A stretch of 64,000 nucleotides of DNA, taken from assembly GCA_037042185.1 (NCBI GenBank), contig JAXQJY010000030.1, forward strand, positions 2,418,001-2,482,000. The letters are read 5' to 3'. The notes under the pieces were generated by a model. That model was not told where the DNA came from, ran no database searches, and worked only from the letters and a program-made list of their open reading frames with translations. This document shows, in pieces, positions 1,448-47,480 of the stretch. Position 1 is the first letter of the stretch, and the number at the start of each line of letters is the position of its first letter. The DNA is from Sordariomycetes sp. S80-01Y (taxonomy: Eukaryota > Ascomycota > Sordariomycetes). A program made the translations under genes and the position numbers.

Positions 1448-4400
1448 TCAGTCTAATTCTATCTGTCTATGGTGCAAGAAGCCAGCAAATTCCACAAATG
1501 TGGGATAGAGGAGAATATGATCAATCGTCACCCGCGAGTCTGATGCCTTCGCACCATTCCCATTAGAATATCGCTTTGCGCTCTTCCTGTGGTGCTCAAC
1601 CAGTGAAACCAAATATGCAGCATCGAGCAGGTCGCTTCCCAGCTGGTAAAATGGCATGTGATGCCCTTTGCGCGTTTGCATGTCATCGACCAGTGGAGCA
1701 GGTTGCCTGGATTGCTTCGAAGCGAAGACGGAAAACCAGATTCTGTCCAGTGCAGCAGAGCCAGCGTCCACCAGCTCGCCCTTAGCTGTTCCGTTGCTCA
1801 TCAGTTTTCCCTCTGAAATAAAGTTCTCGGAATCAATAATTGGCGGCAAGTTGCCGAGGGCTGACGAAGGCTTTGGCATTGCTTTTGTTCCGTAAAGCGC
1901 CGATTGATCCAGTCTGGAAGCTCCGACATCCATGATGAAGTGCACCGTAGCGGCGAGGTCTTCTAAGAGGGCTTGAGCCGTCTCAGGCTGGAATGCTACG
2001 GTCGAGTAGCCAAGGTTGATTTTGACAACACCGTCAACCTCTTCAGAGACAATGGCGAGATCGTACCAGGTTGTGAGCGGTCTGCTCTCCGTAGTGACCG
2101 TGCTGACACTGAAATCTAACCCGGCGCCGCCCGGCTTGGCTGAAGATTTGCCTGGCCTGTGGTTGACAATGGACGTAAATCGAGTCGATGGTGCCCAGTC
2201 CGTACAATAGCGAATAATCTTACGGAAACCGAGGCCCTCGTGGGGAATTCGGTCTCGCTGTTGGTCTCTGACTTGGTGCAACAGATCCAGAAGTGTTTGC
2301 TGACCTGAAGTGCCCAACTTAACTCGCATAGGTACGTGAGTTGCGCAGCAGCCGACGAGGGTATCTGACATTGAAGGATCCGCCAGGTTCCTTCCGGATA
2401 TGGTATCGCCAAAGACCACATCGTCTCTCCCTGTGTACTGGGCCAGAACGTGTGCCCATGCGCAGTTGATAACGGCTGATGTTGTGATGCCTCCGCCCCT
2501 CAGTCTCGACACAGCGATATCTCTCGCCCCTGTGAATGCCATAGGCAGAGGGGTCTGGCTTTCCGGCTTGATTGCCGAGCTCAGTTCGGGCATGGCTGAC
2601 CCATTGAGCAATTTCTTCCAGTAATTGTATGTCATGTCGCTCGTATGTGCCGTCAGATCGTGGACGTAGGCGGAGAAGGAGCTGAGACGCTTCTCAGGTC
2701 TGTCTTGGATATCATACAACTTGCGGAGTGTATTCCAAATGATCGGAAGAGAAAGACCATCATATATGGCGTGAGACATCCTGAAGAGCACGCGGGTCTT
2801 TTTGGTCTCTTCCTGGTGGAGGATGGCCATATTTATCAAAGGATGGCCATATTCGAAACGTCGACTCATCTCCCCTTCTAACAGCCTCTCAGTCGCAGAT
2901 TCAACAGAATCATCGATTTTGATCAACTGAACATCTTGCTGATAAGATTCCAGGATAATTTGGAGAAGCTTCCCGTTGCGAAGATTAGGCACAAACACGG
3001 TTCGGAAGGCTTCTACATGCTGTGCTAACAGGATACAACTCTTCTGTAGTCTGTCCAGATCAAGGTCGGATATCGTATCAAGGACAAAGGTATTTACCTC
3101 GACCTGTGAGGACATCAGCGCTCCAACGACGTTGAACGCCACGGCATCCGTTGCCGGGAATGCGTCCAGGATGGACTCCCTTCCGGTCCCTGTGACTGGA
3201 CATACAGCATCATCGAGGAACGTATCGATGTCATCGACGTTATCTAGAAGCTTGAAAGGATAATATTGCTGCTTTGGGCCCGATTGGGTCACCTGTACTG
3301 AGCCACTGACAGCTTGGGTGGCAGCCGCCAGCTTCCACAACACTGGATTTTTGAAGACATCGAGGACCTTTACATTGAGGTCCTCTGGCTTTGACGCAGC
3401 AACGAGCTTCATGGCGGTGATGGAATCTGCGCCGAGGTCGAAAAAGTTGTCCTCTCGGTCGATGCTGTCCATTTTGATACCGAGCACGGCCGCCCATAGT
3501 CTTCGAACGAGAGCCTCTCTGTCTCCGTGAACTTTCCCAGCTTGCTTAGGCTTAGAAATGTCTGGAAGGAATTGGTCCATAGGTCGGGACCCTTCCCCGA
3601 CCATTGAATGGCGAACTGTTCGGCGATCGGTCTTGCCCGAGGCAGTCTTTGGTATAACGTCCATTTGCATGTACACTCTGGGAACCATGTAAGATGGCAG
3701 CTTTTGAGCCAGAGATGTCTTGAGCCATTCCGACATAGTTGGTAGATCACTGCAACCGGGATTGACAAACTCAATAGCTGCCACGAGCGCACGTTGGTCG
3801 CCTTGCTGGCGGAGATATTCTACCACGACTCCTCTAGCATTGGGAACGAGTCTCAATATACATGACTCGATCTCAGCCAAGTCAACGCGCTGACCACGAA
3901 TCTTGATCTGCGAGTCGCCTCTTCCAAGCATCGATAGGGATCCGTCGCTGTGGTATCGAACCAAGTCGCCTGTGCGATACATTCGACGTACACTTGGTTT
4001 GCTGCTTGGGCCTAGCTGTCCAACAAAGCTGGGATCTTTGATGAATGAAGTCGAAGTCTTGAGAGGATCGTTGAGATAACCGCGGCCGAGGTTCGGGCCC
4101 TCGATGAGGAGTTCGCCGACGGCACCGATAGGCGCGAGACGGTTATGGTCTTGAGGATCAACAACCCAAGTTCGCGTCTTGGTGCCAGGAAGAGCTTTTC
4201 CGATGACGGCTGATTCGTCCTTGTTATTGAGCTGAGCGTTGGCGGTACTAGCGATGGAGCATTCGGCTGGGCCATAGCTGTTGACAAGAGTGGCATTCGA
4301 ATCCCGGAGCCACCTTTCCACCAAGGCAGGGTTGATGTTCTCACCTCCAAGAACAAGCATCTGGACAGCCGGGACTTCGGATGGAGGTATAAGTGCTGCA

Positions 4401-7400
4401 GTGCTGGCGGTGATGTTGACGAAATTGACGTCCAGCCGTCGTATGGTTCCAACCAGATCATTCATCCTCTCGCTCTCCGAAGGGACACATACGGTTCCAC
4501 CACAGCCCAAGGTGACGAAGATATCGCTGATGGAAACATCGAACGTATATGCGCTGAACTGGAATGTGCGCAGAGTCGGACCAGCACGACATACATTGCC
4601 CTTTCCAAGAAGGCCAGACCGCAGGTTTCTATGCTCCAGGACGACGCCCTTGGGAGTTCCTGTGCTCCCAGAGGTGTACATGAGCCAAGCCATGCTTTCA
4701 GGACGAATCAAGCTAGAAGGTAGGTCGTGGTGTTGTCCAACTTGTGCCCGTGCCATGTTACTGAGCGTTGAATTGCTTACCACAATGTTCTTACACCCCA
4801 GACCCAGCGATTCCAACTTGCTCAGATGGGACTCATCGCAAAGAATCATTGCAGGTGCACAGTCTTCTATAATAGCCCTCAGTCGCTCCAGCGGGAGTTG
4901 AACCCCAAGAGGCACAACGGCGCCACCTGCGTACAAGATGGCGAGCATGGCCACGATGGCCCATCGGGACTTGTCCATGCACAGACCCACGGTTACTTCG
5001 GGTCCAACACTTCCTTCGTTAACAAGTTCCTGTGCGAGGATTCTGGCCATCTGGTCGAGCTCTTCGTATGTGAGTTGTCCATCCCAGCTGCAGATGGCCG
5101 GAGCGTCGGGGCGCTCCCGAACGGAGTTGCGAACAAGATCGTGCACGCAGCCTAAGTCTAAGAAGGGCTCTTCGACCTCTGGATTCCATCTTGAGATCTG
5201 GACAAGGTCTCGAGGGTTGGTCAGCGGGAGGCTCCCGATTGTCTGTCCAGTCTGCCCCTTCGCAGTGGCATCGCCAAGCTGGGCGACATTGTGCTCGAAC
5301 TGGCGCAGTACTGCCTCCAAGTGGTCTTCGTGGATGACAGCACCGTCAAAACGAGCTTCCACCACCGCCTCACTCCGGCCCTCGTCTACTCTGCACATCA
5401 CTGCGAGGGGGTAGTCGCCCTGGGCTTCTAGCCCCATATGGACCTGCTCAAAGCCAGGCACTCGAAGCGATGGTGCGGTCAAGTCTGCTTCTGCCGCAGG
5501 ATGCACGAGGAACAGGTGTCTCAAGTCTGCCGGAGCGAAGGTAGGAACAAGCTCCTTGATCTTCTGGAGCCCAATATGCTCGTGGGGTATCATATCAACG
5601 GATGCCCGGTGAACGATCTGCAGGAAATCCTGGACCGTTTGCGCGCCGTCTACCTTGACTCGAACAGGCACGGTCGTAAACGTTGGGGCAGCCATCTCTG
5701 TAATTTCTGCTACGGGAGCTGAGCGACCCGAAAGATTGACAGCAAACATAACGTCTTCAGCAGCGGCAAATTGAGCCACTGTCAGCCCCCAAGCTGCCCT
5801 CAGTAGACTAGGGAACGGCACTTGCAGCTCCGCAAGTTCGTTCACGCGAACCGTTTGCTTTAGAAGCGAGGTGGGCTTGGGTTGATAGTACTCAGCGCTC
5901 ATGGATGGAAGCGATGGGAAGTCGGTGAAAGTCTCACTACCTGCCAGTAACTGGTTCCAGTATTGCGAGGCAGCCTTCATGTCGGTGTTGAGAATGTAGC
6001 GGATGAACCTTGGGTACGGCACCACCCTGGGCACCACACGTCCGGCGTAGGCCGGGTAGAGGTAGTGTTGGTACACTCTCTGGAGACTCCATCTGTCAAA
6101 CATGCTGTGGTGCGTAGTCAAAACAAAGTAGTGGGCGTCCGAGCCCTGATCCTGGATCAAAGCACATCTCAGGAGAGGCCGACCGAGTTCGAATCCGGTG
6201 GCTTTGTCCGTTTCGAGGTAGCGGTCCAGATTACTTCCTTTGTACCATGCCAGAGGGGAATCAACCACTGCTTGGAGAAAGCCGGCATTCGGGTCTAAGA
6301 CAATTCGAGTGCGCAGTATGGGTAAAGTCCTGGTCACAGTCTCCCAAGCGTCCTGGAATCGTGCCATGTCGACGTCTTGACTCGCCCGGAATACCTGGCG
6401 GTACGTGTATGTCGTCGGTTGTCTTGCTGTCATAGCGAAGAGTGCTTCTTGCATGGGGGTGCAAGGGTAGACGTCTTCGATCTGCTGGGGTGTCACCTGG
6501 CACTGAGCCGCGATCCCTGCGACACGAGACTGGAAGTCGGTGCTTGTGGCGGTGTCTAACTCTGTCCCTGACATAAACTCGAACGGGACAGGATCCTTCT
6601 CTGGACTCGTATCCGTGTCTTCTTGCTGCTCCTTTTCCAAAGCCCGAGCGAAATCGTTTAGGATAGGGTGCGTGAAGATTGATGCAACTGTTAGGCGAAG
6701 CCCGGCTTGTCGACCAGCGGCGACGAGCTTCATCGCTGCCAAAGAATCACCGCCGAGGCGCGTGAAATGATCTTGCGCGCCGATGGAATCGGCTTCGATG
6801 GATAGAACATCAGCCCACAGTTGCCGTAGTTGCTTGCCCATTACTGTCTGCGGACTCTCCTTCGCGTTCACACCGTGCATGGCCAGGTATCGTTGCATGA
6901 TTGAAGACCCTGAATCGAGGCTCGTTAGGAAATGTCGTACTGCGTTTCTGTTCGTCTTTCCAGATGGACTCAGGGGTATCTTCTTCCACGGCAGATACGC
7001 GGTAGGCACCATGTAGCTCGGGAGCTTGTCAGCTAATGCATCCTTCAGGTTGCACAAAACTTTCTGTAGTTTCACTGAAGGAGCTAGGACAGTGACGCCA
7101 TTGATGTCTTCTGTTTCAACCTCTTCCTCTTCCTCCTTTCCCTCTTCAGATTCATGCAAGTCATAGCCTTCGGCAAAGTCCATGACTACCACGAGGTCAC
7201 CGGTCCCCTTACCGGCCTGTAGATCGACCAGGTCGACGACAATCGTACGCACTCCGCTGAGGAGCTTCCTGATCCAATATTCAATGACACTCAAATCCAC
7301 ACGATGCCCTTTGAATTTGACCTGGGAGTCTATGCGGCCGAGATGGGTATACGAACCGTCGGTGTTTTGTCGTATGAGATCGCCGGTTCGATACAGGCGT

Positions 7401-10400
7401 CTGCCTGTGCCGCCTAGCCCGATTTGTTTGATGAAGTTTGGCTCGATCACAAAGACTCTCGCCGTCAGCTCTGGGTTGTTGAGGTACTCTTGCGATTGCC
7501 AAGCATTCTCAATGAGTAGCTCACCCGGTACGCCGATTGGGCATAGCTGGTTGTGGTCCGTAGGGCTAGCAATCCAGAAGTTGCAGGTATCCAGCGGGAA
7601 GCCGATGTTGGGCGCGTCTTCAACACTCTTCATAGGACCGCTACATGAGGAGTAGACAGAGCATTCCGAGGGACCGTACATATTGATGAGCTCGGTACGG
7701 CCGAGCCAGCGCTCGACAACACTTGGCTTAGCTTGCTCACCAACGACTGCCAACTGCTTAACTGATGGCACATCGCTCGGATCGATGGTGGAGGCTACTG
7801 TGAAGGTCATCACCAACTGGTTGGCGTTAAGGTCTCTGATTGACTGTGTCAGCGCGTTGAGCCGTTGTTCTTCAGAGGGGATGCACACGCATCCCCCAAA
7901 GATGAGAGTAGTCATGAGCTCCTGTAAAGTGACATCAAACGTGTGAGCCGAGAATTGCAAGGTGCGAGAGTCCTTGGACCAGTTGGACGCCCTTCCGTGC
8001 GCGGGCAGACTGGTAGCGAGACCACCATGGATCAAGAGGGACCCTTTCGGTGCGCCCGTGCTTCCAGACGTGTACACGATCCAAGCGGGATGATAAGGCG
8101 TCAAGGAGGGGCATATGCTTTCATCCTCTCGGGGTGTTGGGAGGCTCTCCATTAGCTTGTCGTCCAAAGCAACGATGAAGGGTCCCGACCCAGCAAGTGA
8201 CTTGGTGTGGCCTTCGTTGGTAAGAAGAACTCGAGCTTCGCAATCCTTCAGCATCGTCTGAAGGCGCGGCACCGGGTCTTGCCTGCCCAGAAGCACGACG
8301 ACTCCTCCAGACTCCAAGATACCCAGCATTGCTACGGCCGTCCATTTGGATTTGTCCATGCACACCGCCACTCGGACTCCTGGGCAAACACCAAGGGAAG
8401 AAAGATAGCTTGCAAGTGTTCTTGTGTGACCCCAAAGCTCTTCATAGGTGAAGTCGCCGTCCCAGGCACAGATGGCTGGTGAAGTTGGCTGTTGGCGAGC
8501 TACTGATTCGACAAGATGATGCAGGCAGACCTGTTCCCGGACCGGAATTTGGGCATTATTGCGTTTGAGCTGGGCTAAATCGCTGGTGGTTACACCGTTC
8601 AGGCTGCTCAAACGCTCCCCACGGTTTGACTCGTCGATGAGCTGTGAAACCCAGTGCTGAAACTGGCGGAGAAGCACTGCCACCTGCGGTTCGCCCACGA
8701 CGTATTCATCGAAGCGTGCCTCAACCTTGACCGAACCTCCGACATCGCTAGGAAGCTGACACTGGAGAGTGAGGGCAAAGGTGTCGAATGCGTCAAGGGC
8801 AGTATCTACCAGACTCATACCGGCAATCTGGCTAACTTCCTTTGCTTCCCCGATCGGCGATGGCTCGATAAGGAAGACGTGTTTGATATCAGTCGCATGA
8901 TGGAGGTCTGGTACGAGACGCCTGATGTCTTCGAGTCCCGTATGTTCAAACGGAATCATTTCTAAAGCCTGCGACTGGATACCCGCAAGATACTCGCCGA
9001 CTTTCGCATCGCGATCGATGTGGACTACAACCGGCACCGTGGTGATAGTGGGAGCAATCAGCTCCGTAATTTCGGCGACTGGGGCGTTTCTACCAGAAAC
9101 TGTCGCACCAAAGACAATATCGCTTGTTCCCACGTATTGACTCAGTGTCATGGCCCAAGCAGCTCTGAGGACGTTGGCCAGGGAGAGCTCGGACCTCGAA
9201 GAAGCGGACAGAGATGTCTCAACCTCGGAATGAAGGACTGCAAGAGGCTTGGGTTGGTAATAAGAAGACGGCATAGAAGGAAACGCCGCTGGCACATCCC
9301 CCTCGAGCTGATTGCGCCAGAAGACTGTGGCCTCTTCGCCACGAAGGTCACCACCTTGCAAATGCGAGATAAACCTCGTGAACGGAACGGTAGGAGGTCT
9401 CTCATCATGTAGATAGAGATTTACCAGCCGCTTGTAGATCAGCTGGGCACTCCAGCCGTCATAGACGGAGTGGTGGGCCGTCCAGACGAAGTAACGTGAG
9501 CCGCTTGGCGCGTCTTGTATCAGCGCAAAACGCATCAGCGGCTCGCCAGGGGACATGACTTGGTTCTGGTCTTCAGAAATATATTCCTCCAAGCTGTCAC
9601 GGTACTGCCACACAGGACCTGTCTTTGAAACCACCTGCAGAGATCCAGACCGCTGCCCCAGCACTATGCGAGTCCGCATCAAAGGAGCCGTTTCTATCAT
9701 GACCTGCCATGCCTTGCGGAAACGCTTGAGATCGATAGGCTCGGAGAGGGCGTACACGCGGCGCACGAGGTACGCTGTGGGACGTTGCTGCGTGGCAGCC
9801 AGCATGCCCTCTTGAAGTGGTGTGCAGGGGTAAACGTCTTCAATGTCAGTCTTCTTAAGGCCGCATTGGCTGGCGATGTCTGCCAGGTCTGCATCTCTGT
9901 CATCGGGTGATGATTCCCACAAGGAAAAGGCGTGATGATCGTAGTACTCTTCGCCTTGAGCTCGGATTGTCTTTGCAGCACCAGCACGTTCATCAACGAG
10001 ACGTGCAAGGTCTCCAAGTCTGGGGACACTCAATACATCTGACACAGTCAGGTTGATATGCTTAAGCCGCGCAGCTTCTACTAGCCTTATGGCCGAGACG
10101 GAATCACCTCCTCGGTATAAGAAGTGGTCGCTCATCTTAATTGAAGTACTGCTCTCTCCAAGTACCTCTGCCCATAAAGACTTTAGAGCTTGAACTGTCT
10201 CTGTTTGCAACTCACTTTCGTCGTCCGAGTCATCCTCTGAGACATAATTCTGCAGATCGGTTGTGCTCAGCTCACTGATCAGTTGGCCTATCATCTTGCG
10301 GTCCGTCTTCGAGGATGCCGTCAGGGGTATCCGTCTGAAAGGGATGTAAAATGTAGGAATCATGTAAGCGGGGAGCTTTATCTGAAGCGTGTTGCGCAAC

Positions 10401-13400
10401 CGGTTGAGGACATCTCGAAGCTGGTCGGAAGCGGGCAAAATGTCCCCATTGTCCGAAGGAACAAAGCTTGTGTTGTCTGGGAACTCGATCGCAGCGAATA
10501 GAGAGCCTCCTTTGGACGAATTTCCATCCTCGCCGAGGACCTTTAAAAGGCCTACAACTGCTCTCGAGACCCCATCGAGCAACTTGGTGATCCAATGCTC
10601 GACTTCAGCCACATCAAGTCGCTGGCCCCGAATCTTGATTTGTGTACCTATCCGACCCACATAGTTCATGGAAAGATCAACATTCTGGCGCACAATATCT
10701 CCCGTTCGATAGAAGCGTCTTCCGCTCGCAGCGCCTAGCAGGCGAGATGAGAATGCTGGGTCGCGGATGAAAGCTGCTGCAGTCTTAGCTTCATCATTGA
10801 GGTATCCTCGAGCCAGTAGTGGCCCCTCTATCAGCAACTCTCCGGGAGCTCCTGGGGGACACAGTCGTCCTGGGTTCTCTGGGTCAGTGACCCAGAAGTT
10901 CACGCTCATGGGAAATCCGATGTTCGGTGCGTCTTCTACGCTTCGGAAAGGTTTGCTGACACTAGCAAAGATGGAACTCTCTGTGGGCCCATAGGCATTG
11001 AAGACGGAGGCTTTGCCAAGCCAGCACTCTAACACACTGGTCTTGACTTCTTCACCAAACAGAACCAACTTTTGAACGAGCGGGACGTCCTCGGGCTTGA
11101 TCGTTGAGGCTACACTTGAGGTGAGGGCCAACATGTTCACTTGCAGCCGACGGACAGACCCTGCCAGATCATTGATACGGTCCTGTTCGTTGGGAATGCA
11201 GACACAGCCTCCATAGATGAGTGTAGTGATCAGCTCCTGTAGGGAGACGTCGAATGTATGAGCTGAAAACTGAAGAACCCTGGTCTCTCGGGACACCCCC
11301 AAAGCGGCACCATGGGCAAGCATACTGGTCGCCAGGGCGCTGTGTTCGACTAACACCCCCTTTGGTGTACCGGTGGAGCCTGATGTATAGAAAACCCAGG
11401 CGATATTTGTTGGTTGGGGCTGTTCTTTCTGCGTGGGTGCTCTCGGTGCACTGGAGGGCACTGTCGAAATGATCTCGCTCACATTCAGAAGTGATTTGCT
11501 CAGTCCAGACAGTCTTTCAACTTGCTTTTCATCGCAGATTATGGCAAGAGGGGAAGAGTCGGCGAGGATCGCTTCTACTCGCGCAGTGGGCTCCCCCGTT
11601 CCGATGGGAACCACGGCACTACCAGACCTTAGGATTCCAAGCATGGTGACGGGAACGAGCTTGGACTTGTCCATACACATTCCAATTGGAATCTCTGGTC
11701 CAGCTCCCATTTCTGTCAAATGCTGAGCCAGATGGGAGGCGAGATGGTCCAACTCTCCATATGTCAGACTCCCGTCCCACGCCTCAACAGCTACAGCTGT
11801 CGCTTGTTTGGATATGCGACTGTTGACAAGGTCGTGGACGCAACGGTTCGAGGTCTCCGGAACATGGGCGTTCTGCTCCAGAATCCGCTGCTCTTGCTCG
11901 TTACTGACCAGCTCTAGCTCTGCAACAGTGGCGCTGACATCCCGGAAGATTGAGTACAGCACCTCCTGAAAGTTCTGAAGAAGGCTTTGGGCATACTCTC
12001 GATCCATGCGGGAAGCCCAGTAGTCCAAGCTGACCTCCATATCAGCCTGGCCTGCCGACACGATGAGGGAAACATCATACTGCGGACCGAGTTAGATTTA
12101 GAACACCAAAGGTCATTTAGGCCCGCACTCACATTAGTCGGGCTTGAGCCCTTGACAATCTTGCAACTCAAGCCTGGAAGACTCTCGTCATCCTGGACAA
12201 GCCTCCGTCGGAAGGACATGACCGTATTGCTCCAACGGCGAGTAGATACCGCGTCTGAAAGTTCCGATTCGTGAGATAGACTTTCCATATAATCTGAGTT
12301 GACATCCTTGATTGCCTCCATGACGTTCTTCTCCCCTTCCAGGTTCATGGAACATAGAAGTGTAGTAATGAGCGGTCCAACAGCTGTCATGATACCTTTC
12401 AGTGGTACGTGCCTCACCGATGAGATATAGGAAAAGCAAACATTGTCGACGCCCAGATGTCCCCTTAGCACAACTCCCCATGCTAACTGGCAGACATTAG
12501 CCAGATTGATGTTGTGTTGCTGGCAAAGTCGGTCAATTGACTTCACATTGATGGCCACGGCGGACTTGACTGTATCGAAGCCCCGCAGGTCAGAAGCCTC
12601 GCGTGTGACAGGAAGATGTGTCTCCTGCGTCTTCTGGATATACTTTCGCCAGTAATCTGACACGGTGGTCCCCAAAGGCAGATGCTGATCAACGACATAA
12701 TCCGAGTAGGAGAGAACCCGTTCGCTGTTGCCGTCGCATCCCGCAACATAACGACACATGTCGCTGAGAATGACCTCGGCTGAATGTCCATCAGTTAAGG
12801 CATGAGAGATTGTGAGGACCAGTGTGAACTGTCCCGGACCAGCCTGGCCAACTGTCAGGTGATGAGGTACTTCCAGTGGCTGGAACTCGATCTCTGGAGC
12901 CGCGGTGGTACTTGTAATCACATTGACTCGAGGGACGACTTTGTTGAGGACGACTTGGTCGTAGTGGCCCTGCCGACCTGCGCTCTCGATGAACACGGTT
13001 CTCAGGGACGAGTGTTTCTCAACTACTCTGCTCCATGCCGCAACCCACCTGTCAGCATCACAAGAAGCAAATTGACCTGATGTCGCCACCCTGACCGTGA
13101 AAGCACATATATAGGCTCCCTTGTCCACGGAGTTGGCAACGAGGATGTTTTCCTGTACAGGAGAGCAAGGATAAATGTTATCAATGTCTTTCAAGGGATC
13201 TCTCGCGATCTTCAGCAGCTTCTGCTCGAACACACGATCCAGCGATGGGTAATCCATTGATATGTAAGGGAAATCGCTGAGGGTAGGCAGTGGGCTACTC
13301 TCGGCCAGTCTGAGCACGACATCATCGATATGATGAATAATACTCTCTGCACTCGCCTTCAGCTCGACCTCGCTGCCAAGATCGGCACTACACACGATCA

Positions 13401-14763
13401 GGAAGCTCAATTTATTGCTCGTCCAGAAGGGCGACACATAGATCCCTCCTATCGTTTGTGCAAGGAGCTTCCCAATGTCGTGCTTGGAGACCTCATCAGC
13501 TAGCTGTGATGTGTCCTCCGGTTCTCTCTTTTTTTCCAACTTGCTTGTGTCAAAAATAAGATTGTTGGGGTTTGAGTCGTCGGGAAAGGTTTGCAGGACA
13601 GAGCGCCTTCTCCCATCCTTGGCTTTGCGAGACGCATCTAAGACGTCTCGGCTGCAGTGGAAGGGTATTTCGGTAAGCTCGTCAAAACAGCCGATCACCG
13701 CATCCCATGAGCCATCGACTTCTCTTGGTCGCCCATCCCTGATCTCGAGATATCGATTCAGGCTGGGGAATTGATCACTGAAGGAGGCTGCCAACGCTCC
13801 CAGTATCAAGTCGGCCATCTCTGTCCGCATTATCTGGTGGCATTTCTCGTCCTGGAGGGATTCTGTTGACTCCAGGCTCAGATCGAATGAATATGACGAT
13901 ATAGCGCCTGGCTCATGGAGACTCAGGGAAGGAGACTCTGAGCTTCTCAGCTGGACCTCCGGAATGTCTATATTATGTGCTTCAGCCTCTCTTTGATATG
14001 CTGCTTTCTCAATCCATTCGATAAAGGTGTGTGGTTGCTGAACATCCACTTTGCGGTCGCCACATGAGTACATGTGGATGTCTCTAAGGAGTATATGCCA
14101 AGAATGGGCGTCGATGGCGCCAGTAAGTGCTACCAACCCAATCTTCTTGATTTGTGACGTTTCGCCGAAGAAGAGGGCGCTGAGAACGGGTGTCGTAGAT
14201 TGCGAGCTCAAAGGCTCCATCTGCAGCTCCTTGACCAGGGCTGCACATTTCTCATCGGACTCATATGGCACCAAAGTTCCTGATGGAGAGTCTGTGGTCC
14301 CTAACAAGAGATGTGGTGTCTCGGAATCGACCTCAAGTGACGCACTTAGTAGCATGTGCCTCGTCGTCAGTGATTTAATCACTTGGACGGCACCATCGTG
14401 TGTCATCGGGGGCTCGACATTCCATATCAAGGCCTGACGCAACCCTGTGGCGTTGTAAAGGTTCTGGAGCAGTGTTGAAGGGACTCGGGCGGGTTGCTGT
14501 TCTGGCTCCTCGCTCGACTGTAGTTGGGGATCATTTTGCACCAGCTTGCTGACTAGATCATTGATCGTCATGCCTTGAGAAACATCGCCGACATCGACGA
14601 GAAGGTCAAGGTCTCTGCATTGACCGGCGAAGAAGACTGCCGATAGGGCATCACCTCCTTGCTCAGCAAGGGACTTTCCCAAGTCAACTTGGGATTCATC
14701 CTTCTTCAGAATTTGAGATGCCACCTTGCAAAGCAAGGATTCGATGCTTCTTCGGCTGCTCAT
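1448..14763 (-). CDS. Three-module non-ribosomal peptide synthetase with inactive N-terminal T-E relic and cyclising-type terminal C domain
   Basis: This cytosolic megasynthase assembles a peptide by the thiotemplate mechanism. Two exons (14763-12133 and 12079-1448) flank a 53-bp intron and encode 4,420 residues. The first ATG in frame is at 14763. Approximate domains: degenerate T (1-75, GGDA at 36-39 instead of GGDS), degenerate epimerase-like (95-490), C1 (528-935, SHALTDG at 653), A1 (955-1475), T1 (Ser1537), C2 (1620-2035, HHSVYDG at 1746), A2 (2060-2595), T2 (Ser2656), C3 (2740-3170, HHSMFDR at 2867), A3 (3185-3705), T3 (Ser3763), terminal C (3838-4275, SHAIYDG at 3979), degenerate T (LGSDL at 4357). 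All three A domains keep the TSGSTG ATP loop, YRTGD and the A10 lysine. The terminal C motif SHxxxDxxS fits fungal cyclising C domains. It diverges from the PKS, which probably supplies an acyl starter. Predicted product (inference): a polyketide-capped tripeptide, possibly macrocyclic. Confidence 0.95.
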
Positions 14764-15670
14764 GTTTGCTGATGCTCGAAATGGCAACGTGACGCTCCTG
14801 TACCGGCGTTAGATACCTTACAACGTGAGGCGTACATATGAACTCACTCATGTAGATAAAAATGTTACAAAATATGAGTTGAGTTGCCAAGCCGCACTTT
14901 CCAAAGCGGTACTATGCGTTGCTACGAGTCTGGGTTGTATTCAACACGGCGGCAGCTAAACGAAGCCGTGAGGATGCTCGGGACTGCTTTGCACATACCG
15001 CGGCAACAGATGGCCAGGAAGGCTGAAATGCTCATGTAAACGGAAAGTTACAGGGGGGCTCGATGGATCGAGAGTCCGATGCAGCTAATCAGGAGCTTGC
15101 ATGATACATAGACTTGGCTAAATATAGGCGCATAATTAGACTCGGCCAGGACTTCCGTTGGATATATGGGGCCGTCGGAGGATGTGCCGCTGGAGCTAGT
15201 CTAGTTCATTCATTACCTGTCATCTGCGCTCAAGCGCGCGCATTGAACAACAACAGCTGCCTGGGGATGTAAGCGCTCCACAGACAGATTTGCGATTTAT
15301 GACGAGCATTTGTCATTCTGCAGATGAAACGAAGAAAAGGAACAGCTCAGGTTTTGGTGCGAGATAAAGGGGACTTTGCAAGAGGAGCCGTTCGCCTGGG
15401 AGGGATGGAGTCCACGCCCAGACAGACCGCGCGATGGGATGAAGCGCTGATTCATAGAGTTTGCAGGATCAATGCCGTGGAGTGACAACCCTGTATTCGG
15501 AGCGAGAGCTCCAGGGCTTTTCAAATGTGCATGAGCTGATGCGCAAGGTGGACTATCCGAGGATTCCGGCCGATACTGACCGCGTCGCTTGTAGGATCTA
15601 TATTCCGTGGTATTAGCCTGGATTTTGAATCCAAAGTTCGGATTTTGGCTGCTCCTCTTCATTTCATATG

Positions 15671-15685
15671 GAAGGATTCGATCCT
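15671..15685. promoter_or_regulatory. Candidate operator, copy 1 (AGGAT-TCG-ATCCT)
   Basis: The core is an inverted repeat, AGGAT and ATCCT, separated by TCG. A near copy lies about 54 bp downstream. Spaced inverted repeats of this kind are common targets of dimeric fungal regulators, but the factor is unknown. Calling it an operator is inference. Confidence 0.3.
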
Positions 15686-15724
15686 GTCATCGTCGGGAAA
15701 GATTCGGCCTTCTTGTTTTGTAAC

Positions 15725-15739
15725 GAAGGATTCGACCCT
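15725..15739. promoter_or_regulatory. Candidate operator, copy 2 (AGGATTCGACCCT)
   Basis: This matches copy 1 over GAAGGATTCGA and CCT with one mismatch, which weakens the right arm of the inverted repeat. Both copies sit in the NRPS/PKS promoter about 0.5 kb upstream of the PKS start. Confidence 0.28.
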
Positions 15740-15745
15740 CCCACG

Positions 15746-15768
15746 GACCCTCTTATAGACCCTCTTAT
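15746..15768. repeat. 11-bp tandem direct repeat GACCCTCTTAT
   Basis: Two exact copies of GACCCTCTTAT separated by a single A lie just after the second candidate operator in the shared NRPS/PKS promoter. They could be a pair of binding sites or a chance duplication. Confidence 0.5.
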
Positions 15769-16219
15769 TGCGCTCAGAAGGATTGTGCCTTTGCATCGCC
15801 TAGCCGCCAACCAGGACTCGGCAGCTGCAAAGCCCTGAATCTGCTACAGAACCAGCATGGGCTAGTGAAAAGAGGAATGTAGTGCATGCAGACTAGGGGT
15901 CTTCCATGGTGAGTGAGACTGTTTAACCCAATCGGGTAATGACTCGTAGTCTTCAAGCTACCGGTGAACAGTGGGCTCGTAAGCTGTAAGCTGCACGGAC
16001 TCGCGCGCTTCGGCAGTACTTGTTATCAAACGATACCAGATGTAGTTGATTCAGGCTTGAGCTACTTTGCATCCTGAATGTTCCTGCACGTGCTAGTTGG
16101 GTGATGAGTAAGTGAGGGCAGAACTGCAGCAGCTACGACTTGTCTTCCGGAACCTTACTCTTCTCTATTGCCCAGAGAGCCTCACCTCACTCTCACACTC
16201 ATCCTCATTTTCAGACATC

Positions 16220-19200
16220 ATGGGCTCACTAGGCCCCAGTCTCGCCGTAAATGGCAGCACGGCAGTAAACGGAAGCGCTTCGCCAGCTTCTGATGGCGGG
16301 CAGTACGAGCCTATTGCTGTGGTGGGTATGAGCTGTAGGCTTCCAGGAAACGCAACGGACACACAAAAGCTATGGGAATTGCTCAAACAGGGTCGGTCAG
16401 CATGGGGGAAGACCCCCAAAGACCGCTTCAACCAAGAAGGCTTCCACGACTCTTCTGGTGATATTAAACCTGGAACCGTAAGGAATCTTCTCCTTCCTGC
16501 GATGGTTACTAACTCGAAGTAGACAAATACAGACGGTGGACATTTTCTGAAAGACGACGTAAAGGCTTTTGATGCCTCGTTTTTCGGAATAAACCCCGTG
16601 GAGGCAACGGTGCGTCCTCTCTGCCAACCAAAATTGAGGTAAAGAGGGTTCAACGTGACTAATTGCGAATTGGCTCCGTATCTAGGCCATGGACCCTCAG
16701 CAAAGACTCGTTCTCGAGATTGCTTATGAGGCTTTTGAAAATGCTGGTCTCACAATCGAGCAGCTTTCAGGATCCAACACCGGCGTTTACGTTGGTCTCT
16801 GGGCTTCGGATTATCAAGAGATCCTCACACGAGACACCGATTTCCCACCAACATACCAGGTCACAGGAGTCGGCCCAGCCATTGCCTCAAACCGCGTCTC
16901 GTACTGTTTCAACCTCAAGGGACCGAGCTTCACCCTCGACACGGGCTGCTCAGCCAGTTTGGTTGCGCTGCACCAGGCCGTACAAAGTCTTCGTGCTGGG
17001 GAGACCGAAACATGCTTTGTGGCGGGCGTCAATCTACTATTGGATCCCCAGAGGTATGCTTATCAGAGTCGTCTCAAGATGTTTTCCAACATGGGAAAAT
17101 CATATTCGTTTGACCACCGTGCCCTCGATGCCAGCGGATATGGAAGAGGCGAAGGATGTTCGGGAGTTGTCCTGATGCCTCTCTCACGCGCACAGAAGGA
17201 GGGCCATCCAATCCGTGCCGTCATCCGCAATTCTGTCGTCAATCAGGACGGCAAGACACAGGGTATCAGTGTTCCGAGTGCTTCAGCTCAGTCCGCGGCT
17301 ATTGAAAAGGCATACGCCCAGGTCGGTCTACGACCATACGCGGACTATGTCGAGGCTCACGGTACGGGCACCAAGGTCGGTGACCCCATCGAGGCCAAGG
17401 CCATTGCAAAGATCCTTGGTGTCACAAGAGACCCCAACTCCCCACTTCCCATAGGCTCACTCAAGGCCAACATTGGACACTTGGAAAGTGCAGCAGGCTT
17501 GACAGGCCTGATTAAGGCCGTCTTAGTTCTCGAACACAACGCCATACCACCACAAGCGAACTTCGAGAAGGCGAACCCGGAGATTGACTTAAAAGAACTC
17601 AACCTCAGGATACCCGTAGAGCTGGAACGCGGCCCTATCAAGAGAGTGTCCGTGAACAGCTTCGGGTACGGGGGTACCAATGTCCACCTCATTGTTGACT
17701 CTGCCGCTGCGGGTGTGGAAGAGGAGCCAATTTCTACAAACGGGTTTCAATCTAACGGCGATCATGTGCCCAATGGCAGCATCAATGGCACACAAAAGGC
17801 CAAGGACCAGCTGTTTGTTCTCAGCGCTGCCAGCGAAAAGTCGTGCCAGAACATGGCAGCGTCCTTGTCGGAGTATCTGAGCAATCACTCGGATACAGCC
17901 GAGCCGGGAAAACTCCTAGATCGTCTTGCATACACGTTATCTCAGAGATCGGTGCTGGAAAACAGGGCAGGAGTCATTGCCTCCGGACTAGAGGATCTCC
18001 TTGCACAGCTCTCCAAGCTGTCAACCCAACCTATACCTCGATCCGACCGCCAAATGAGCCCCCGCATTGCATTTGTCTTTGGTGGCCAAGGCGCTCAGTA
18101 CCCACGGATGGCCCAAGGGCTACTGGGATCATGGCCATGCTTCACGGCGAGCATGAAGCGGGCTGGTCGATGCTTGGAGGAGTGCGGAAGCTCTTGGGAT
18201 CTCTTTGAAGAGTTACTGAAAGCACCGGAGGAAAGCCGCATGGAAGACCCGTGCATTGCTCAGCCCATCTCCACAGCGGTTCAAATCTCGCTTGTGGACG
18301 CTCTCAAGGATTTGAACATCATCCCGAGTGCAGTGACCGGTCATTCCAGCGGTGAAATAGCTGCTGCGTATTGTTCAGAAGCCATAACCTTCGAGGATGC
18401 CCTCAAGATCTCATACCACCGCGGTCGTCTAACCAGCGAGTTGAGAGTGGAGAAGAAGGGCAACGCTGGAGCCATGATGGCTGTGGGTGCCTCAGCACAG
18501 GTGGTCAAGCAGTCAATAGAGCAGCTAGACAAGTCTGCTGCTGCTAGGATCGCCATCGCCTGCTACAACAGTCCTTCCAGCATTACAGCCTCCGGGGATG
18601 AAGATGTGGTCGCCGCATTGAAGCAGAAGCTGGACGAGCAAGATATTTGGAATCGCCTACTCCGGACTGGAGGAGCCGCCTACCACTCGCCTCAGATGCT
18701 GCAGATTGCAAGCAAGTATTACGAAGCTCTCAAGGACGTATCCGGCGGTGTGCCTGCGTCTACCATCAACATGGCTTCCTCAGTCACGGGAGATGAATTT
18801 GGAGACAAGCCCGTCAACAGCGACTACTGGGTGCATAACCTGGTTTCGCCGGTCCGCTTCGTTGATGCCCTCAAGAAGACATGCGTAGCAAAGGACGGAA
18901 CGCGAAAGGTCGACCTGATCCTGGAAGTGGGATCTCACTTCCAGCTGGAGAGCCCCATCAAGCAGACTTTAAGGTCTTTCACGGGAGAGGCTGCCAGGAT
19001 CCAGTACGCAGGTACTTTGAAACGCGGAGAAGATGCCCATCTTCGCATGCTTGAGATGCTGCGGTCTCTATATTTGGAAAAGACACCTGCCGCGTTCTGG
19101 AAGGCGCCTGGACATGAAGGCAAGGCAATTCAAAAGGTTCCCACGCTGCTGACGGATCTGCCACCTTATCCTTTTGACCATTCTAAGACGTTTTGGCACG

Positions 19201-22200
19201 AGAGTCGCGTCTCAGCTGGGTACCGAAATCGCCAATTCCTGCCCCATGAGCTTCTCGGCACTCTCGTCCACGACAACAACCCACAGGAGCCCAGATGGCG
19301 CTGCTACCTCAACCTGAAAGACGTGCCCTGGCTAAGTGGCCATGTTATTCAAGGGCAAACCATCTTCCCCGCCGCCGGATATCTCGCCATGGCCCTCCAG
19401 TCAGCGAGACAAGACACCTTTATCCGGAATCCCGAGGCCATCATTGAGCGATTTGTGCTGCGAAATGTCAGCATATCGCAGGCGCTTGTCATGGACAGTG
19501 GAAAGACTGATCTCGAAATCAGCTTGTCTCTGCGACCTCAAGCTGTGTCGGCGAGGAAGTCGTCAAAGCTGTGGCAAGAGTTCCGAATCTTCACCACGTC
19601 TACCGACAATGTCTGGACCGAACACTGCCGTGGTCTTCTACAAGTGGTGCTCAAATCTGGTGTTGCAGGCGACGACGAGAACCTCACCATTTCCCGTACG
19701 CAAGTTACACTGCCCTCTTATGCCCAACACATCCAGCCCAAGAAGTTCTACCACAGAGCAGGTGATTTGGGCCTCAACTGGGGCACTCCCTTTGACAACC
19801 TGACCGATATTAGGACCACTGATGGTGCGTCCATTTCGGACTCGTCGTTCGTGGCCGCCGGCACTGGGCCTGCTGGGACGTACACGGTACATCCAGCAGT
19901 TCTGGATGCCTGCCTCTACCACAGCATCATGTCAATCCTGATTTTCGAAGACGCGATCACATCACCGGTCGTGCCGACATTCATCGAGAAGCTCGTCGTG
20001 GCCGAGCAGGATCCGACCCAGCCGCTCCAAGAAGTCACCTGCCACGCTACTAGGACAAAGAGCTTCCTTACATTCGACATTGGCGTCGTTGAGAAGGAGA
20101 GGCAGGACAAGCTGGTGCTCCAGGCGTGGGGTGTCAGCGCAACGAAGTTACCAGACCTCTCCGCCGGTGACAAGGGCAACCGAGACTTGTGTCACGTCGT
20201 GGACTGGGTCACTTACATGTCGAAGACTACCAAGAAGCATATCGACAAGCTCTGTAAGAGCACTATCGAAGACAAGTCCATTCTTGCTGAGCATCGAGCA
20301 CTTGTTGCCTTGACGTTGCACTATGTCAGGCGCTCACTGGCGGCCACATCGGCAGAAGACATACCTGAAGGCTACCAGCGCCACTGGTTCAACTGGATGC
20401 AGACGATTTCCGACCAAGAAGCCGACCCCGAGTTGCTGAGCGTCGCAGAAGCAGACGATAGTATCGTGGCACAGGCCTTGAAGCGTTTAGGACCACAGCT
20501 AAACGAGCTCCTGCGAGGAACAGTTCATCCCTTGTCTTTGCTGACCGATGGTGATCTGCTAGGCAGACTCTACTCGGAAGAGCGTTGTGCCCGCTGCATC
20601 ACTCAAATTTCAGCCTACTGCGGCGAGCTCGGTCGCCAGAACCCCAACATGAAAGTCCTCGAAATCGGCGCAGGTACCGGATCGGCAACTCTGCCCATCC
20701 TACAGGCCCTCCAGAGCTCCAGCAAAGTCCTCGCGTCTTCCTATGACTTTACAGACATCTCGTCTGGATTCTTCCCGGCGGCGAAGGAACTGCTGGCCGA
20801 CTTCGATAACATCATGAACTACAAGACCCTGAACATCGAAGACAGCCCCGAGTCTAACGGCTTCGAGCCACACAGCTACGACGTGGTTATCGCTTGCAAC
20901 GTCATCCACGCCACTTCTCGTATCGACGCTGTTCTAGAGAATGCCAAGGCCTTGGTCCGTCCCGGCGGCAAGCTGATCCTCATGGAGCTCACGGAGAACC
21001 GCGCCTATTACAACTTTGTCTTTGGTGCGTTTGCCGGTTGGTGGGCGGGCTACGATGAAGGCCGAAAGCTCTCTCCCCTTCTTTCTCGTACAGAATGGGT
21101 GCAGAGACTCCAGCAGACAGGCTTCGTTCAGAACGAGCCTTTGTTCTGGGACTACCCCGTGGCTGACGGTGGCACCATCACCGTCTTTGTGTCCGAGAAC
21201 CCAGAGCCTGCCCCGTCAGCAGCACCTTTGGCCATCGATGTCATCGCTTCCCCGGATCAGTCCCCGCATTCTATGTTCACTGAAAAACTCAAGAAGCGCT
21301 TCTGGGACCGCGACGTAGAGCTCTCCGCACCCTCCAAGCCTGTTGAGGGCGACAAGATGTCCATCATCCTCCCGGAGCTGTGCGACCGTGTAGCATGGGA
21401 CATCGACGGGCCGCTTTTCGATGCACTGAAGGCTCGAATAATTGCCTCTAAGGCGGTCATGTTCGTGACGCGCACGGCCAATGGCAAAGAAGAGCGACCT
21501 GGTGGTGACTGGGTCTACGGCTTCTGCCGATCGATCCGTCAGGAGCACACCTCTGTGCGCCTCATCAGCCTCGAGATCGGAAGCAGCCTGGAGGACTGCC
21601 TTGAGCCTCTAGCAACCATCCTGAACAGCTCAACGGCCGATCTTAGCATCCCCAACGGCGATGTCGAGCTTGAGTTCGTGGAGAAGGAGGGCCAGCTCTT
21701 CGTCTCCCGCGTTCGTCCGGAGCCAGGACTTGACAGTCACATTCGTCGGGACTTGGGTGAGTCGCGCCCGGAAGAGGCTCTTTTCATCAACAACAGATCC
21801 ATGTCTGCAGAGCTGGCCGTCCCAGGTGTGCTCGACACCATCCGCTGGGTGGATAACCCTGAGATCGCTGGAGAACTGGACCCCGACCACATCAAGCTGG
21901 AGCTCTGCGCCGCAAGCATCAACTTCAAAGATGTTCTGATTGCCTCTGGCCAGCTCGAAGGCATTACTCGGATGCAGAACGACTGCAGCGGCGTCGTCCT
22001 CGAGGTCGGAGCCAACATGAAGGACAGATTCACCCCCGGAGATCGCGTGTGTGCTCTTTACTCGCAGTCGTACACCAACTATCCTGTCGTTCATGGAGAC
22101 TGCTGCCATGTGGTGCCTGATTCGATAGATCTGGTTGCCGCTGCCTCGATTCCCATTGTCTGGGCCACCACGTACTATTCTCTAGTGTATGCTGCCAAGC

Positions 22201-24018
22201 TGCAAAAGGGCGAGAGCATCCTTATCCACTCGGCAGCTGGAGCTGTTGGTCAAGCAGCCATCATGCTTGCCCGTCATCTTGGGGCTGAGATCTTTGTCAC
22301 CTGCGGAAACGACACCAAGGCGGAGCTGTTGATCAAAGAATTTGGCATCAAAGAGGACCACGTCTTCTCGAGCCGGACGACGGCTTTCCGCGAAAAGGTT
22401 AAAAGCCTGACCAGCGGCGAAGGTGTTGACGTCGTCCTCAACTCACTCAGCGGGGAGATGTTCCGCGAGTCGTGCAACTCTCTCGCACCGTTCGGGCGCT
22501 TCGTCGAGATCGGCCGCAAGGACCTGATGGAAGACGCCCTGATGCCCATGGAGTTCCTCCTCAACAACATCACATTCTCCTACGTCGACCTGGCGCACGT
22601 CATCGTCACCAGGAAAAGGCTAGCCCACAAGGTCTTGCACGAGGTCATGGACCTGTTCAACCGCGGGGTCGTAGAGACTGTGAGGCTGACAAAGTTCCCG
22701 ATTTCTCAGATTGGAGAAGCGTTCCGCTTGATCCAAGCTGGCAAGCACACGGGCAAAGTGCTCCTGACCGTGGAGCCAGAGCAGAAGGTTCAGGTAAGTA
22801 GCCAGTAGGCTTTGAAAGTGCTTAGCTCTAGATATGGTACTGACTGTCGAAATCTAGGTTGTTGAACCAAGGCCTACGCCGGTTCAGCTTCACTCGGACG
22901 CGACCTACATCGTGGTTGGCGGTTTGGGTGGGTTGGGTAAGCGCATAGTTGGCTGGATGGCAGAGCAGGGTGCGCGTCACATTGTCATCTTCTCCAGATC
23001 GGCCCGGGTGGACACAGAAGCTCAGAGTTTCCTGGATAGGCTCGCATCCCTAGGTGTCACTGTACGGGTGGACCAGTGCGATGTCACTTCGGAAGACTCG
23101 TTGAACCGGGCCCTGACCAACATAAGTGAGGAAATGCCACGCATCCGTGGCCTCGTCCAGGCTGCTATGGTCCTCCACGATGTTCTCCTGGATGACATGA
23201 CCGTGGAGCAATGGTGCAAGGCTACCAGCCCGAAGATCCGTGGCACGTGGAATTTGCACACCATGCTGCCCCCTCAGCTGGACTTCTTCATCATGCTCTC
23301 CTCGGTCGTGTCCGTTGTCGGCAATATTGGCTCAAGCAACTATGCAGCGGCGTGCTCTTACCAAGACGGAATCGCTCACTACCGCCAACGCCTAGGCTTA
23401 CCGGCGTACTCGATCAACGTCGGCGCTGTCATTGAAGCCGGCTACGTCAGCGAGAACCCAGAGGTGGCCGCGACCCTCCGTCGAAACGGCCTGGGCAACG
23501 TCACCATTGCCGAGTTCTTTTCGCATCTCGGGCACGCGATCCGGAACGAGACGAGACACTGCCAGTCATCGGTGGGCTTGGTCCCATCCGGCAACGAGCG
23601 CGGCCTCGAGACCATGTACTGGACCAACGACAAGAAGTTTGCCCACCTCGGACGGGAGAACCAGGTCGGCAAGCAGAAGGTCGGCGGCGCTGACGACGTC
23701 AGCTCGGTGCTTCAGGCTGCGGAAACGTACGAGGAGGCGTTGGATGCCGTCCGCGGGGCCATCGTCAAGCAGCTCGCGACCATCCTCGCCCTTGGATCTG
23801 ACGAGATCATTTCTGCGCGGAGCCTAGACTCGTACGGCGTCGATTCGCTTGTTGGCGTAGAGTTGAGGAACTGGATCAGCGCCTATCTGCAAGTTAACCT
23901 GCCCCTGCTGGTTATGTGGAGTACCAACAGCATCGATGAGCTGGCTGGGATTGTGACCAAAGGATCTAGACTGGTGACCGTGAAGGCGGACGAGGAGGAA
24001 GTGGCCGCGCAAGAGTAA
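16220..24018 (+). CDS. Highly reducing type I polyketide synthase (KS-AT-DH-MT-ER-KR-ACP)
   Basis: An iterative PKS that builds a reduced, possibly C-methylated acyl chain from malonyl units. Four exons (16220-16477, 16523-16609, 16686-22793, 22858-24018) encode 2,537 residues; introns are 45, 76 and 64 bp, the first with a perfect TACTAAC branch site. KS starts near residue 33 with Cys203 in DTGCSAS and histidines at about 340 and 380. AT has the GHSSG serine at 669. DH has WLSGH near 1000 and its DACLYH partner near 1188. MT has LEIGAGTG near 1438. ER has HSAAGAVGQ near 1963. KR begins [10 protein letters not shown] near 2166 with its tyrosine near 2312. The ACP serine lies in GVDSL near 2481. 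No thioesterase or reductase follows the ACP, so the chain must leave by another protein, most simply onto the first C domain of the divergent NRPS. All catalytic motifs look intact. Confidence 0.96.
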
Positions 24019-47282: not shown

Positions 47283-47480
47283 GCAGGTCGCCCGCTCCTC
47301 GAGGCGTACTTGTCGCATCTCCTTTCGTTTCTCGTATATACCTTTTTATACCCTGTAAATATGGGCACACAAGCATTAGCTGCGGCGGACTTCTGGAAAC
47401 CGGACTGTCGCTATCAAATGAATCAAACGAAATGACACTTGAATATCCTGTCAGCTGTATTGACTCTATTGCCGTGATAC

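What the first reader, a model, noticed from the sequence alone, without database searches (positions are those of the whole stretch)
1448..24018. Divergent HR-PKS and three-module NRPS pair predicted to make a polyketide-capped cyclic tripeptide
Seen: a complete HR-PKS without a release domain is head-to-head with an NRPS that has three intact C-A-T modules, no initiating A domain and a terminal C domain with SHxxxDxxS. Known: HR-PKS/NRPS pairs make lipopeptides such as emericellamides, W493 and fusaristatin, and fungal terminal C domains of this type cyclise. Inferred: the first C domain accepts the PKS acyl chain and the product is an acyl tripeptide, probably a ring. The three-A-domain layout recalls the fusaristatin pair, so the cluster may be a relative of it or a new member.
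Basis: partly seen in the sequence, partly recalled or inferred. Interest (0 to 1): 0.75.

Follow-up and report, generated by a model that had tools for sequence, protein, structure and literature searches.

The report
Polyketide–peptide synthase pair, lost start
Two back-to-back fungal genes look set to make a small compound from a fatty-acid-like chain and three amino acids, probably a ring, and the peptide enzyme still carries the broken remains of an earlier starting unit that the chain seems to have replaced.

Summary
In detail: an open HR-PKS (2,537 aa, KS-AT-DH-MT-ER-KR-ACP, no release domain) lies head-to-head with an open 4,420-aa NRPS with three A domains, no first A domain and a terminal C domain. 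(1) The NRPS begins with a dead carrier (GGDS to GGDA) and a dead epimerase-type domain: T†-E†-C1-A1-T1-C2-A2-T2-C3-A3-T3-CT-T†. (2) C1 groups with fungal post-epimerase C domains (100/96), not with C2/C3 or the C domains of two PKS-NRPS hybrids. (3) No ligase, acyltransferase, P450 or aminotransferase was found among the ORFs of at least 200 aa in 94 kb. Best explanation: the PKS carrier hands its chain directly to C1, three residues are added, and CT releases a ring (inferred). It works like fusaristatin synthesis; membership could not be tested, since no Fusarium sequences were available, and genes reported for that cluster are absent nearby. Product unknown.

The parts
1448..14763 (-). NRPS gene, 2 exons (14763..12133 and 12079..1448), 4,420 aa
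14539..14751 (-). T0: carrier-like domain with the serine replaced (GGDA), dead
   Evidence: Pfam PF00550 E=0.0024 and 0.0011, both under the curated cut-off; alignment with intact T domains
13249..14496 (-). E0: degenerate epimerase-type domain (HHxxxD to LTGAID; EGHGRE and GWFT motifs lost), dead
   Evidence: own-genome hit to T-E of another NRPS E=4.9e-15; BLASTP E=6e-15; 24.6 bits to a two-sequence E profile against 6.9 for the best shuffle, 1.1 bits to the C profile; tree
11861..13191 (-). C1: condensation domain (SHALTDGHS), spans the intron; post-epimerase type
10220..11836 (-). A1 (hand-read code D V Q A V F A I F K; A8 hinge position is G)
10004..10219 (-). T1 (GGDS)
8546..9850 (-). 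C2 (HHSVYDGWS), LCL-like
6869..8521 (-). A2 (hand-read code D V Q V A V M V Y K)
6647..6862 (-). T2 (GGDS)
5174..6487 (-). C3 (HHSMFDRWS), LCL-like
3551..5143 (-). A3 (hand-read code D V S N V G S I A K)
3326..3541 (-). T3 (GADS)
1850..3178 (-). CT: terminal condensation domain (SHAIYDGLS), proposed cyclase/release
   Evidence: own-genome best hit is the terminal C of the C12 NRPS, E=1e-56; tree 100/99
1451..1780 (-). Carrier-like tail with the serine position changed (LGSDLL), dead
   Evidence: no Pfam hit; alignment
14764..16219 (.). shared intergenic/promoter stretch; holds GAAGGATTCGAYCC at 15671 and 15725, the only two exact copies found in the genome
16220..24018 (+). HR-PKS gene, 4 exons, 2,537 aa, KS-AT-DH-MT-ER-KR-ACP, no TE or reductase
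16313..17567 (+). PKS KS domain (DTGCS), approximate bounds, spans two introns
18072..19055 (+). PKS AT domain (GHSSG)
19245..20156 (+). PKS DH domain (HxxxGxxxxPxxG, HPAVLD)
20658..20975 (+). PKS C-methyltransferase domain (VLEIGAGTG)
21870..22772 (+). PKS ER domain (approximate bounds)
22900..23430 (+). PKS KR domain
23761..23949 (+). PKS ACP (VDSL)

Best explanation
A two-gene fungal pathway for a polyketide-capped tripeptide, probably a macrolactone. The HR-PKS builds a reduced, C-methylated acyl chain and keeps it on its ACP (domains shown; chain inferred). The NRPS descends from a synthetase with an A-T-E block before C1. The A domain is gone, and the T and E are left in place but dead (the dead T and E are shown; the loss of an A is inferred). 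C1, once the acceptor of a D-aminoacyl or acyl-D-aminoacyl group from that block, now takes the acyl chain directly from the PKS ACP and joins it to the first residue (inferred). Modules 1-3 add three alpha-amino acids; no live E domain remains in the NRPS (inferred from domains). CT closes the ring, most simply onto a beta-hydroxyl of the acyl chain because the N-terminus is acylated (inferred from the families).
For: Open frames of 4,420 and 2,537 aa sharing one 1,456-bp intergenic stretch. PKS complete without TE or reductase. T0-E0 matches T-E tandems of other NRPSs of the same genome: five places at E 4.9e-15 to 4.7e-7, three of them in the C12 NRPS, and aligns through its length with one intact T-E (E=6e-15); T0 serine and E0 HH, EGHGRE and GWFT are all changed. 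The C12 NRPS has A (534890), T-E (536495), C (538163) in that order, the block that I think was lost in part here. C1 is in one clade with 3 of 3 post-epimerase C domains examined (100/96) and with one of them in the fungal-only tree (99/95). No acyl-CoA ligase or acyltransferase by Pfam (E<=0.01) among 31 of 31 window ORFs and 16 of 16 ORFs of the 30 kb to the left, all of at least 200 aa. A dead T0 argues against loading by the ligase/acyltransferase-to-first-T route that PMC4515620 (passages) gives for emericellamide and W493-B.
Against: C1 does not group with the C domains of the two loci that I take for fused PKS-NRPSs, which should accept polyketides (rejected; the label rests on position beside PKS hits, and the tests were chosen after seeing the tree). 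Direct ACP-to-C1 transfer is not shown. A1 has an odd hinge residue and C3 an odd motif residue, so parts of the line might be weak or dead. No expression, no product, no relatives from other fungi, so neither co-regulation nor conservation is tested. A feeding enzyme outside the 94 kb, or in short exons, is not excluded. C1 has a long branch and odd composition.
Confidence: 0.66

Rival explanations
1. A true fusaristatin-type synthetase (orthologue of NRPS7/PKS6), with a close relative of fusaristatin as product. This overlaps with the best explanation and differs in kinship and product.
For: Three A domains, adjacent HR-PKS, no acyltransferase, cyclic release (passages of PMC10967133 and PMC10455296).
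Against: The P450, aminotransferase and A/B-barrel genes listed for that cluster were not found by Pfam in the ORFs of at least 200 aa of 94 kb; all three A domains carry the alpha-amino-acid aspartate (hand-read), while fusaristatin needs beta-aminoisobutyrate. No NRPS7 sequence could be compared.
Confidence: 0.12
2. A member of the emericellamide/beauveriolide group: polyketide freed, activated by an acyl-CoA ligase and loaded by an acyltransferase onto the first T of the NRPS.
For: HR-PKS plus NRPS with a T-like domain at its start; beauveriolides are cyclodepsipeptides from an HR-PKS and an NRPS with three A domains (PMC7471007, abstract and passages).
Against: The first T has no serine; what follows it is E-type, not C-type (24.6 against 1.1 bits); neither ligase nor acyltransferase found nearby.
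Confidence: 0.08
3. The NRPS is in decay: loss of the first A, T0 and E0 and odd residues in A1 and C3 mean that the line no longer makes anything.
For: Dead head and dead tail carrier; A1 hinge G, the only one of 29, and C3 motif R.
Against: 13 kb of open frame with one clean intron; the three central T serines, the A core motifs and the catalytic histidines of C1, C2, C3 and CT are present; some bacterial C domains examined also lack G at that place.
Confidence: 0.1
4. The two genes are neighbours but not partners: the PKS product is freed by another enzyme, and the NRPS makes a plain tripeptide or is fed by another acyl donor.
For: C1 does not group with the presumed polyketide-accepting C domains examined.
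Against: Head-to-head pair with a common intergenic stretch, no other core synthase gene found in 94 kb, a PKS without release and an NRPS without a start, which fit each other.
Confidence: 0.1

Closest known systems
Fusaristatin A pair PKS6/NRPS7 (Fusarium)
   Same: Adjacent HR-PKS and three-module NRPS, no acyltransferase in the cluster, direct transfer proposed, cyclic release (PMC10967133 and PMC10455296, passages read)
   Different: No P450, aminotransferase or A/B-barrel gene found nearby; no A domain lacking the alpha-amino-acid aspartate; head of NRPS7 unknown to me, sequence not available
Beauveriolide (BesA/BesB) and emericellamide (EasA/EasB) systems
   Same: HR-PKS chain on a small cyclic depsipeptide (PMC7471007, abstract and passages)
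   Different: Those have clustered CoA-ligase and acyltransferase genes and, for emericellamide, a first T that is loaded; BesA has an E domain in its fourth module; here T0 is dead, no ligase or acyltransferase was found, and no live E
W493-B (NRPS32/PKS40) and scopularide (NRPS1/PKS2)
   Same: HR-PKS plus NRPS; E domain after the first amino-acid module (PMC4515620, passages)
   Different: Six and five residues; T-C head; ligase plus acyltransferase or thioesterase reported (PMC4515620, PMC10967133, passages)
Fungal NRPSs with A-T-E-C units (here the C12 NRPS of the same genome, 7,644-aa frame; HC-toxin and apicidin synthetases recalled, not compared)
   Same: T-E-C head, post-epimerase type C1, terminal C of the same clade
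   Different: Here no A before T0, and T and E are dead

Membership tests
Fungal HR-PKS/NRPS lipopeptide pair | Complete HR-PKS without release domain next to a multimodular NRPS lacking an initiating A domain | tested here: met
Fungal HR-PKS/NRPS lipopeptide pair | First C domain uses the polyketide as donor | not testable with these tools
   Phylogeny places C1 with post-epimerase C domains; the donor itself needs an assay
Fungal HR-PKS/NRPS lipopeptide pair | Product is an acyl peptide | not testable with these tools
   no chemistry available
Fusaristatin synthetase (NRPS7/PKS6) | Sequence orthology to NRPS7 and PKS6 | not testable with these tools
Fusaristatin synthetase (NRPS7/PKS6) | Cluster holds P450, aminotransferase and A/B-barrel genes | tested here: not met
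   none by Pfam at E<=0.01 among 31 of 31 window ORFs and 16 of 16 left-flank ORFs of at least 200 aa; short exons could be missed, and the right flank was seen only to the window's end
Fusaristatin synthetase (NRPS7/PKS6) | An A domain for a beta-amino acid | tested here: inconclusive
   all three hand-read codes begin with D; the code rule is recalled knowledge
Emericellamide/beauveriolide type | Functional first T domain loaded by ligase and acyltransferase | tested here: not met
   T0 serine is alanine; no ligase or acyltransferase found nearby
A-T-E-C-starting cyclopeptide synthetase | Live initiating A-T-E | tested here: not met
   no A before T0 in the gene model; T0 and E0 catalytic residues lost
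Fungal terminal cyclising C domain | Terminal position, grouping with another terminal C apart from LCL domains, SHxxxDG motif | tested here: met
   100/99 with the terminal C of the C12 NRPS, a clade of two rows; the motif also occurs in C1, so it is not diagnostic alone; cyclisation itself not tested

The most novel reading that the evidence does not exclude
The dead T-E head is not mere debris but has been kept as a docking platform on which the PKS carrier sits while a post-epimerase C domain, re-purposed from D-aminoacyl to polyketide donors, takes its chain: a second, independent way for fungi to start a lipopeptide, with no ligase, acyltransferase or loading carrier.
Probability: 0.15. 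Interest if true: 0.65.

Novelty: new variant of a known kind. Interest (0 to 1): 0.45.

Why it matters
It gives a readable record of how a peptide assembly line may have swapped its first amino acid for a polyketide: the A domain is lost, T and E stay as fossils, and the next C domain is handed a new donor. If C1 really takes the chain straight from the PKS, it is a minimal two-protein system for studying trans transfer from PKS to NRPS and donor choice by C domains, and a lead to a small cyclic lipopeptide that may be new.

Tried and rejected
Structure prediction of the N-terminal 525 aa from a single sequence gave mean pLDDT 36 and was not used. A scan of genome contigs for bacterial relatives found none (the alignment was used only for identities), so bacterial C domains were taken from four plasmid records. 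Their labels rest on position alone, and the row that I labelled bacterial DCL (L043_3396) falls with E domains in the tree, so its label is probably wrong. PDB search with the head gave only chance hits. Local profile tests of E0 against the first C set were near noise, as was the wider C profile (1.1 bits, shuffles up to 6.1); only the E profile, built from two E domains of one NRPS, gave a signal (24.6 bits). Rfam and tRNA scans were empty. NCBIfam added nothing decisive. Substrate prediction from the A codes was not attempted beyond reading them. Ten short ORFs beside the pair (1-1.3 kb, 24-26.5 kb) gave no Pfam family above cut-off. Rows dropped before the tree: matches under 300 aa and E0 were left out, giving 77 rows; 35 peptaibol-type rows were thinned to 17, giving 59.

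Literature: ten searches, read as listings; only openly licensed papers are held, and Sorensen et al. 2014 on fusaristatin and W493 was not seen. Opened: PMC7471007 (outline with abstract, passages), PMC10967133, PMC12881047, PMC4515620, PMC2823734, PMC4517408, PMC6367777, PMC10455296 and PMC3688495 (passages), PMC4495368 (introduction only). The T. inflatum papers' passages told nothing about this pair. One search (vestigial, epimerization domain, NRPS, fungal, polyketide) found no paper, which does not show that the feature is unreported.
Full report
What is there. The window is G000:C13:2418001-2482000 of a 30.87-Mb, 16-contig genome that also carries NRPS frames of 21,803, 18,091, 15,043, 14,448 and 10,670 aa. 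That size fits peptaibol synthetases, so I take it for a hypocrealean fungus, perhaps near Tolypocladium (inference; passages of PMC4517408 describe a 31.2-Mb Tolypocladium genome with a 10-module peptaibiotic NRPS and others). The species is not tested.

Genes. The NRPS runs from 14763 down to 1448 with one 53-bp intron and codes for 4,420 aa. The HR-PKS runs from 16220 to 24018 in four exons and codes for 2,537 aa. Both frames are free of stops. Pfam shows KS, AT, DH, MT, ER, KR and ACP in the PKS and nothing after the ACP, and three A domains with C and T domains in the NRPS. PKS motifs found: DTGCS, HGTGT, GHSSG, DH His and Asp, [20 protein letters not shown] (the ER motif escaped my pattern but is visible).

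The missed head. The first 505 residues are not a linker. In the own genome they match T-E tandems at five places with E below 1e-6: three in a 7,644-aa NRPS frame on C12 (best 4.9e-15), one on C2 and one more on C12. A pairwise alignment with one C12 T-E runs through the whole head (E=6e-15, 22% over 550 columns). At the places that matter the head is changed: carrier GGDS to GGDA, epimerase HHxxxD to LTGAID, EGHGRE lost, GWFT to GCFD, the Tyr block missing (the epimerase motifs are recalled and are seen in the two intact rows of that alignment). Against a profile of two intact E domains of the C12 NRPS, E0 scores 24.6 bits, while the best of 937 reported shuffles (2,000 made) scores 6.9; against the C profile it scores 1.1, within the shuffles. 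In a quick tree it joins the E domains (99 SH-aLRT, very long branch, long-branch warning). Pfam sees only the T-like part, under its cut-off. The C-terminal tail looks like a carrier with leucine at the serine position, but Pfam does not see it. So the order is T†-E†-C1-A1-T1-C2-A2-T2-C3-A3-T3-CT-T†.

In a 59-row tree C1 falls with all three fungal C domains that follow an E domain by position (100 bootstrap / 96 SH-aLRT), C2 and C3 are sisters inside the clade of the peptaibol-type domains, and CT joins the terminal C of the C12 NRPS (100/99). Trees that hold C1 with the two C domains that I take for parts of fused PKS-NRPSs, or with C2 and C3, are rejected (AU p=1.5e-7 and 8e-4; both groups were tested after the tree had been seen, which makes the p-values optimistic). 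A fungal-only tree keeps C1 with one post-epimerase domain (99/95), but C1 has a long branch and an unusual composition, of which the program warns. I do not think that it refutes the pairing here: there is no A domain before T0, and T0 and E0 are dead, so no D-aminoacyl donor can be made in cis. It does speak against C1 being by ancestry an acyl-accepting starter domain.

Origin. A1, A2 and A3 are 42.8 to 44.0% identical. A1, the only one searched, finds A2 and A3 first (45%) and no other A domain of the genome above 39% among the 80 scored. C2 and C3 are 39.5% alike. The three modules may be internal duplicates. Two ancestors would fit: an A-T-E-C(-A-T-C)x3 cyclopeptide synthetase that lost its first A, or a lipopeptide synthetase of the W493 or scopularide layout (T-C-A-T-E-C..., from passages of PMC4515620) that lost T-C-A. 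Only other fungal sequences can decide.

Surroundings. All 31 closed window ORFs of at least 200 aa and all 16 such ORFs of the 30 kb to the left were scanned with Pfam at E<=0.01. To the left the hits include a ferric reductase, a pro-kumamolisin peptidase, a SIR2 protein, a LysM protein, a Tle1-like hydrolase, a fungal lectin, an AA9 protein, a GH18 protein and a fungal regulator. To the right they include Whi5-like, C2HC5 zinc-finger, 2EXR, malate dehydrogenase, P-type ATPase, GH45, SDR, MFS, Zn2Cys6 and FMN-dehydrogenase genes. No ligase, acyltransferase, thioesterase, P450 or aminotransferase appears. Short exons could be missed. The pair looks like a two-gene pathway, with the caveat that helpers can lie elsewhere.

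Mechanism. The PKS builds and methylates a reduced chain (domains shown, chain inferred); ACP to C1 transfer (inferred; a passage of PMC10967133 proposes direct transfer for fusaristatin because its cluster has no acyltransferase); three residues added (three A-T pairs with intact motifs); release by CT, most simply as a lactone on a beta-hydroxyl of the chain (inferred). Two doubts: A1 has G at the A8 hinge where 28 of 29 fungal motifs found have D, and C3 has R where 34 of 35 peptaibol-type motifs have G.

Regulation. The 1,456-bp shared stretch holds GAAGGATTCGAYCC twice, 54 bp apart, and these are the only two exact copies found in the genome. About 0.5 copies would be expected by base count alone (my estimate), so a local duplication is as likely as a binding site. 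With two mismatches allowed the window has 8 matches against 1.2 expected, spread over the window.

Known kinds. It works like the HR-PKS/NRPS lipopeptide pairs. It is closest in layout to PKS6/NRPS7, but is not filed as a member: orthology could not be tested and the reported accessory genes were not found nearby. It fails the emericellamide-type loading scheme at the first carrier. I rate it a new variant of a known kind; if NRPS7 turns out to have the same dead head, it is only a new member.

Noticed in passing
window 15671-15738: GAAGGATTCGAYCC twice, 54 bp apart, in the shared promoter; no other exact copy found in the genome.
   Followed up: partly
window 43569-62642: A looser group of genes of secondary-metabolism flavour: SDR, NmrA-like (under cut-off), MFS, Zn2Cys6 regulator and FMN-dependent dehydrogenase; about 20 kb from the PKS, link unknown.
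   Followed up: no
G000:C12:534890-556798 (parts in L037, L038): Large NRPS with A, T-E and C in order near its start, further T-E-C units and a T-CT end without an A domain in the last unit; resembles the conserved NPS4/NRPS4 type from memory.
   Followed up: partly
G000: C6, C15, C14, C11, C9: Five NRPS frames of 21,803, 18,091, 15,043, 14,448 and 10,670 aa in one fungus, the size of peptaibol synthetases.
   Followed up: no
G000:C11:634-661 kb and C14:27-37 kb (L001-L008): Eight C domains with a bacterial-like motif (HHIxxDGWS or YS); five of them are 54-61% identical to a sixth; some lie about 4.5 kb apart, which suggests N-methylating modules; cyclosporin-clade type by resemblance only.
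   Followed up: no
window 10220-11836, A1: A8 hinge residue G, the only one of 29 fungal A8 motifs found.
   Followed up: partly
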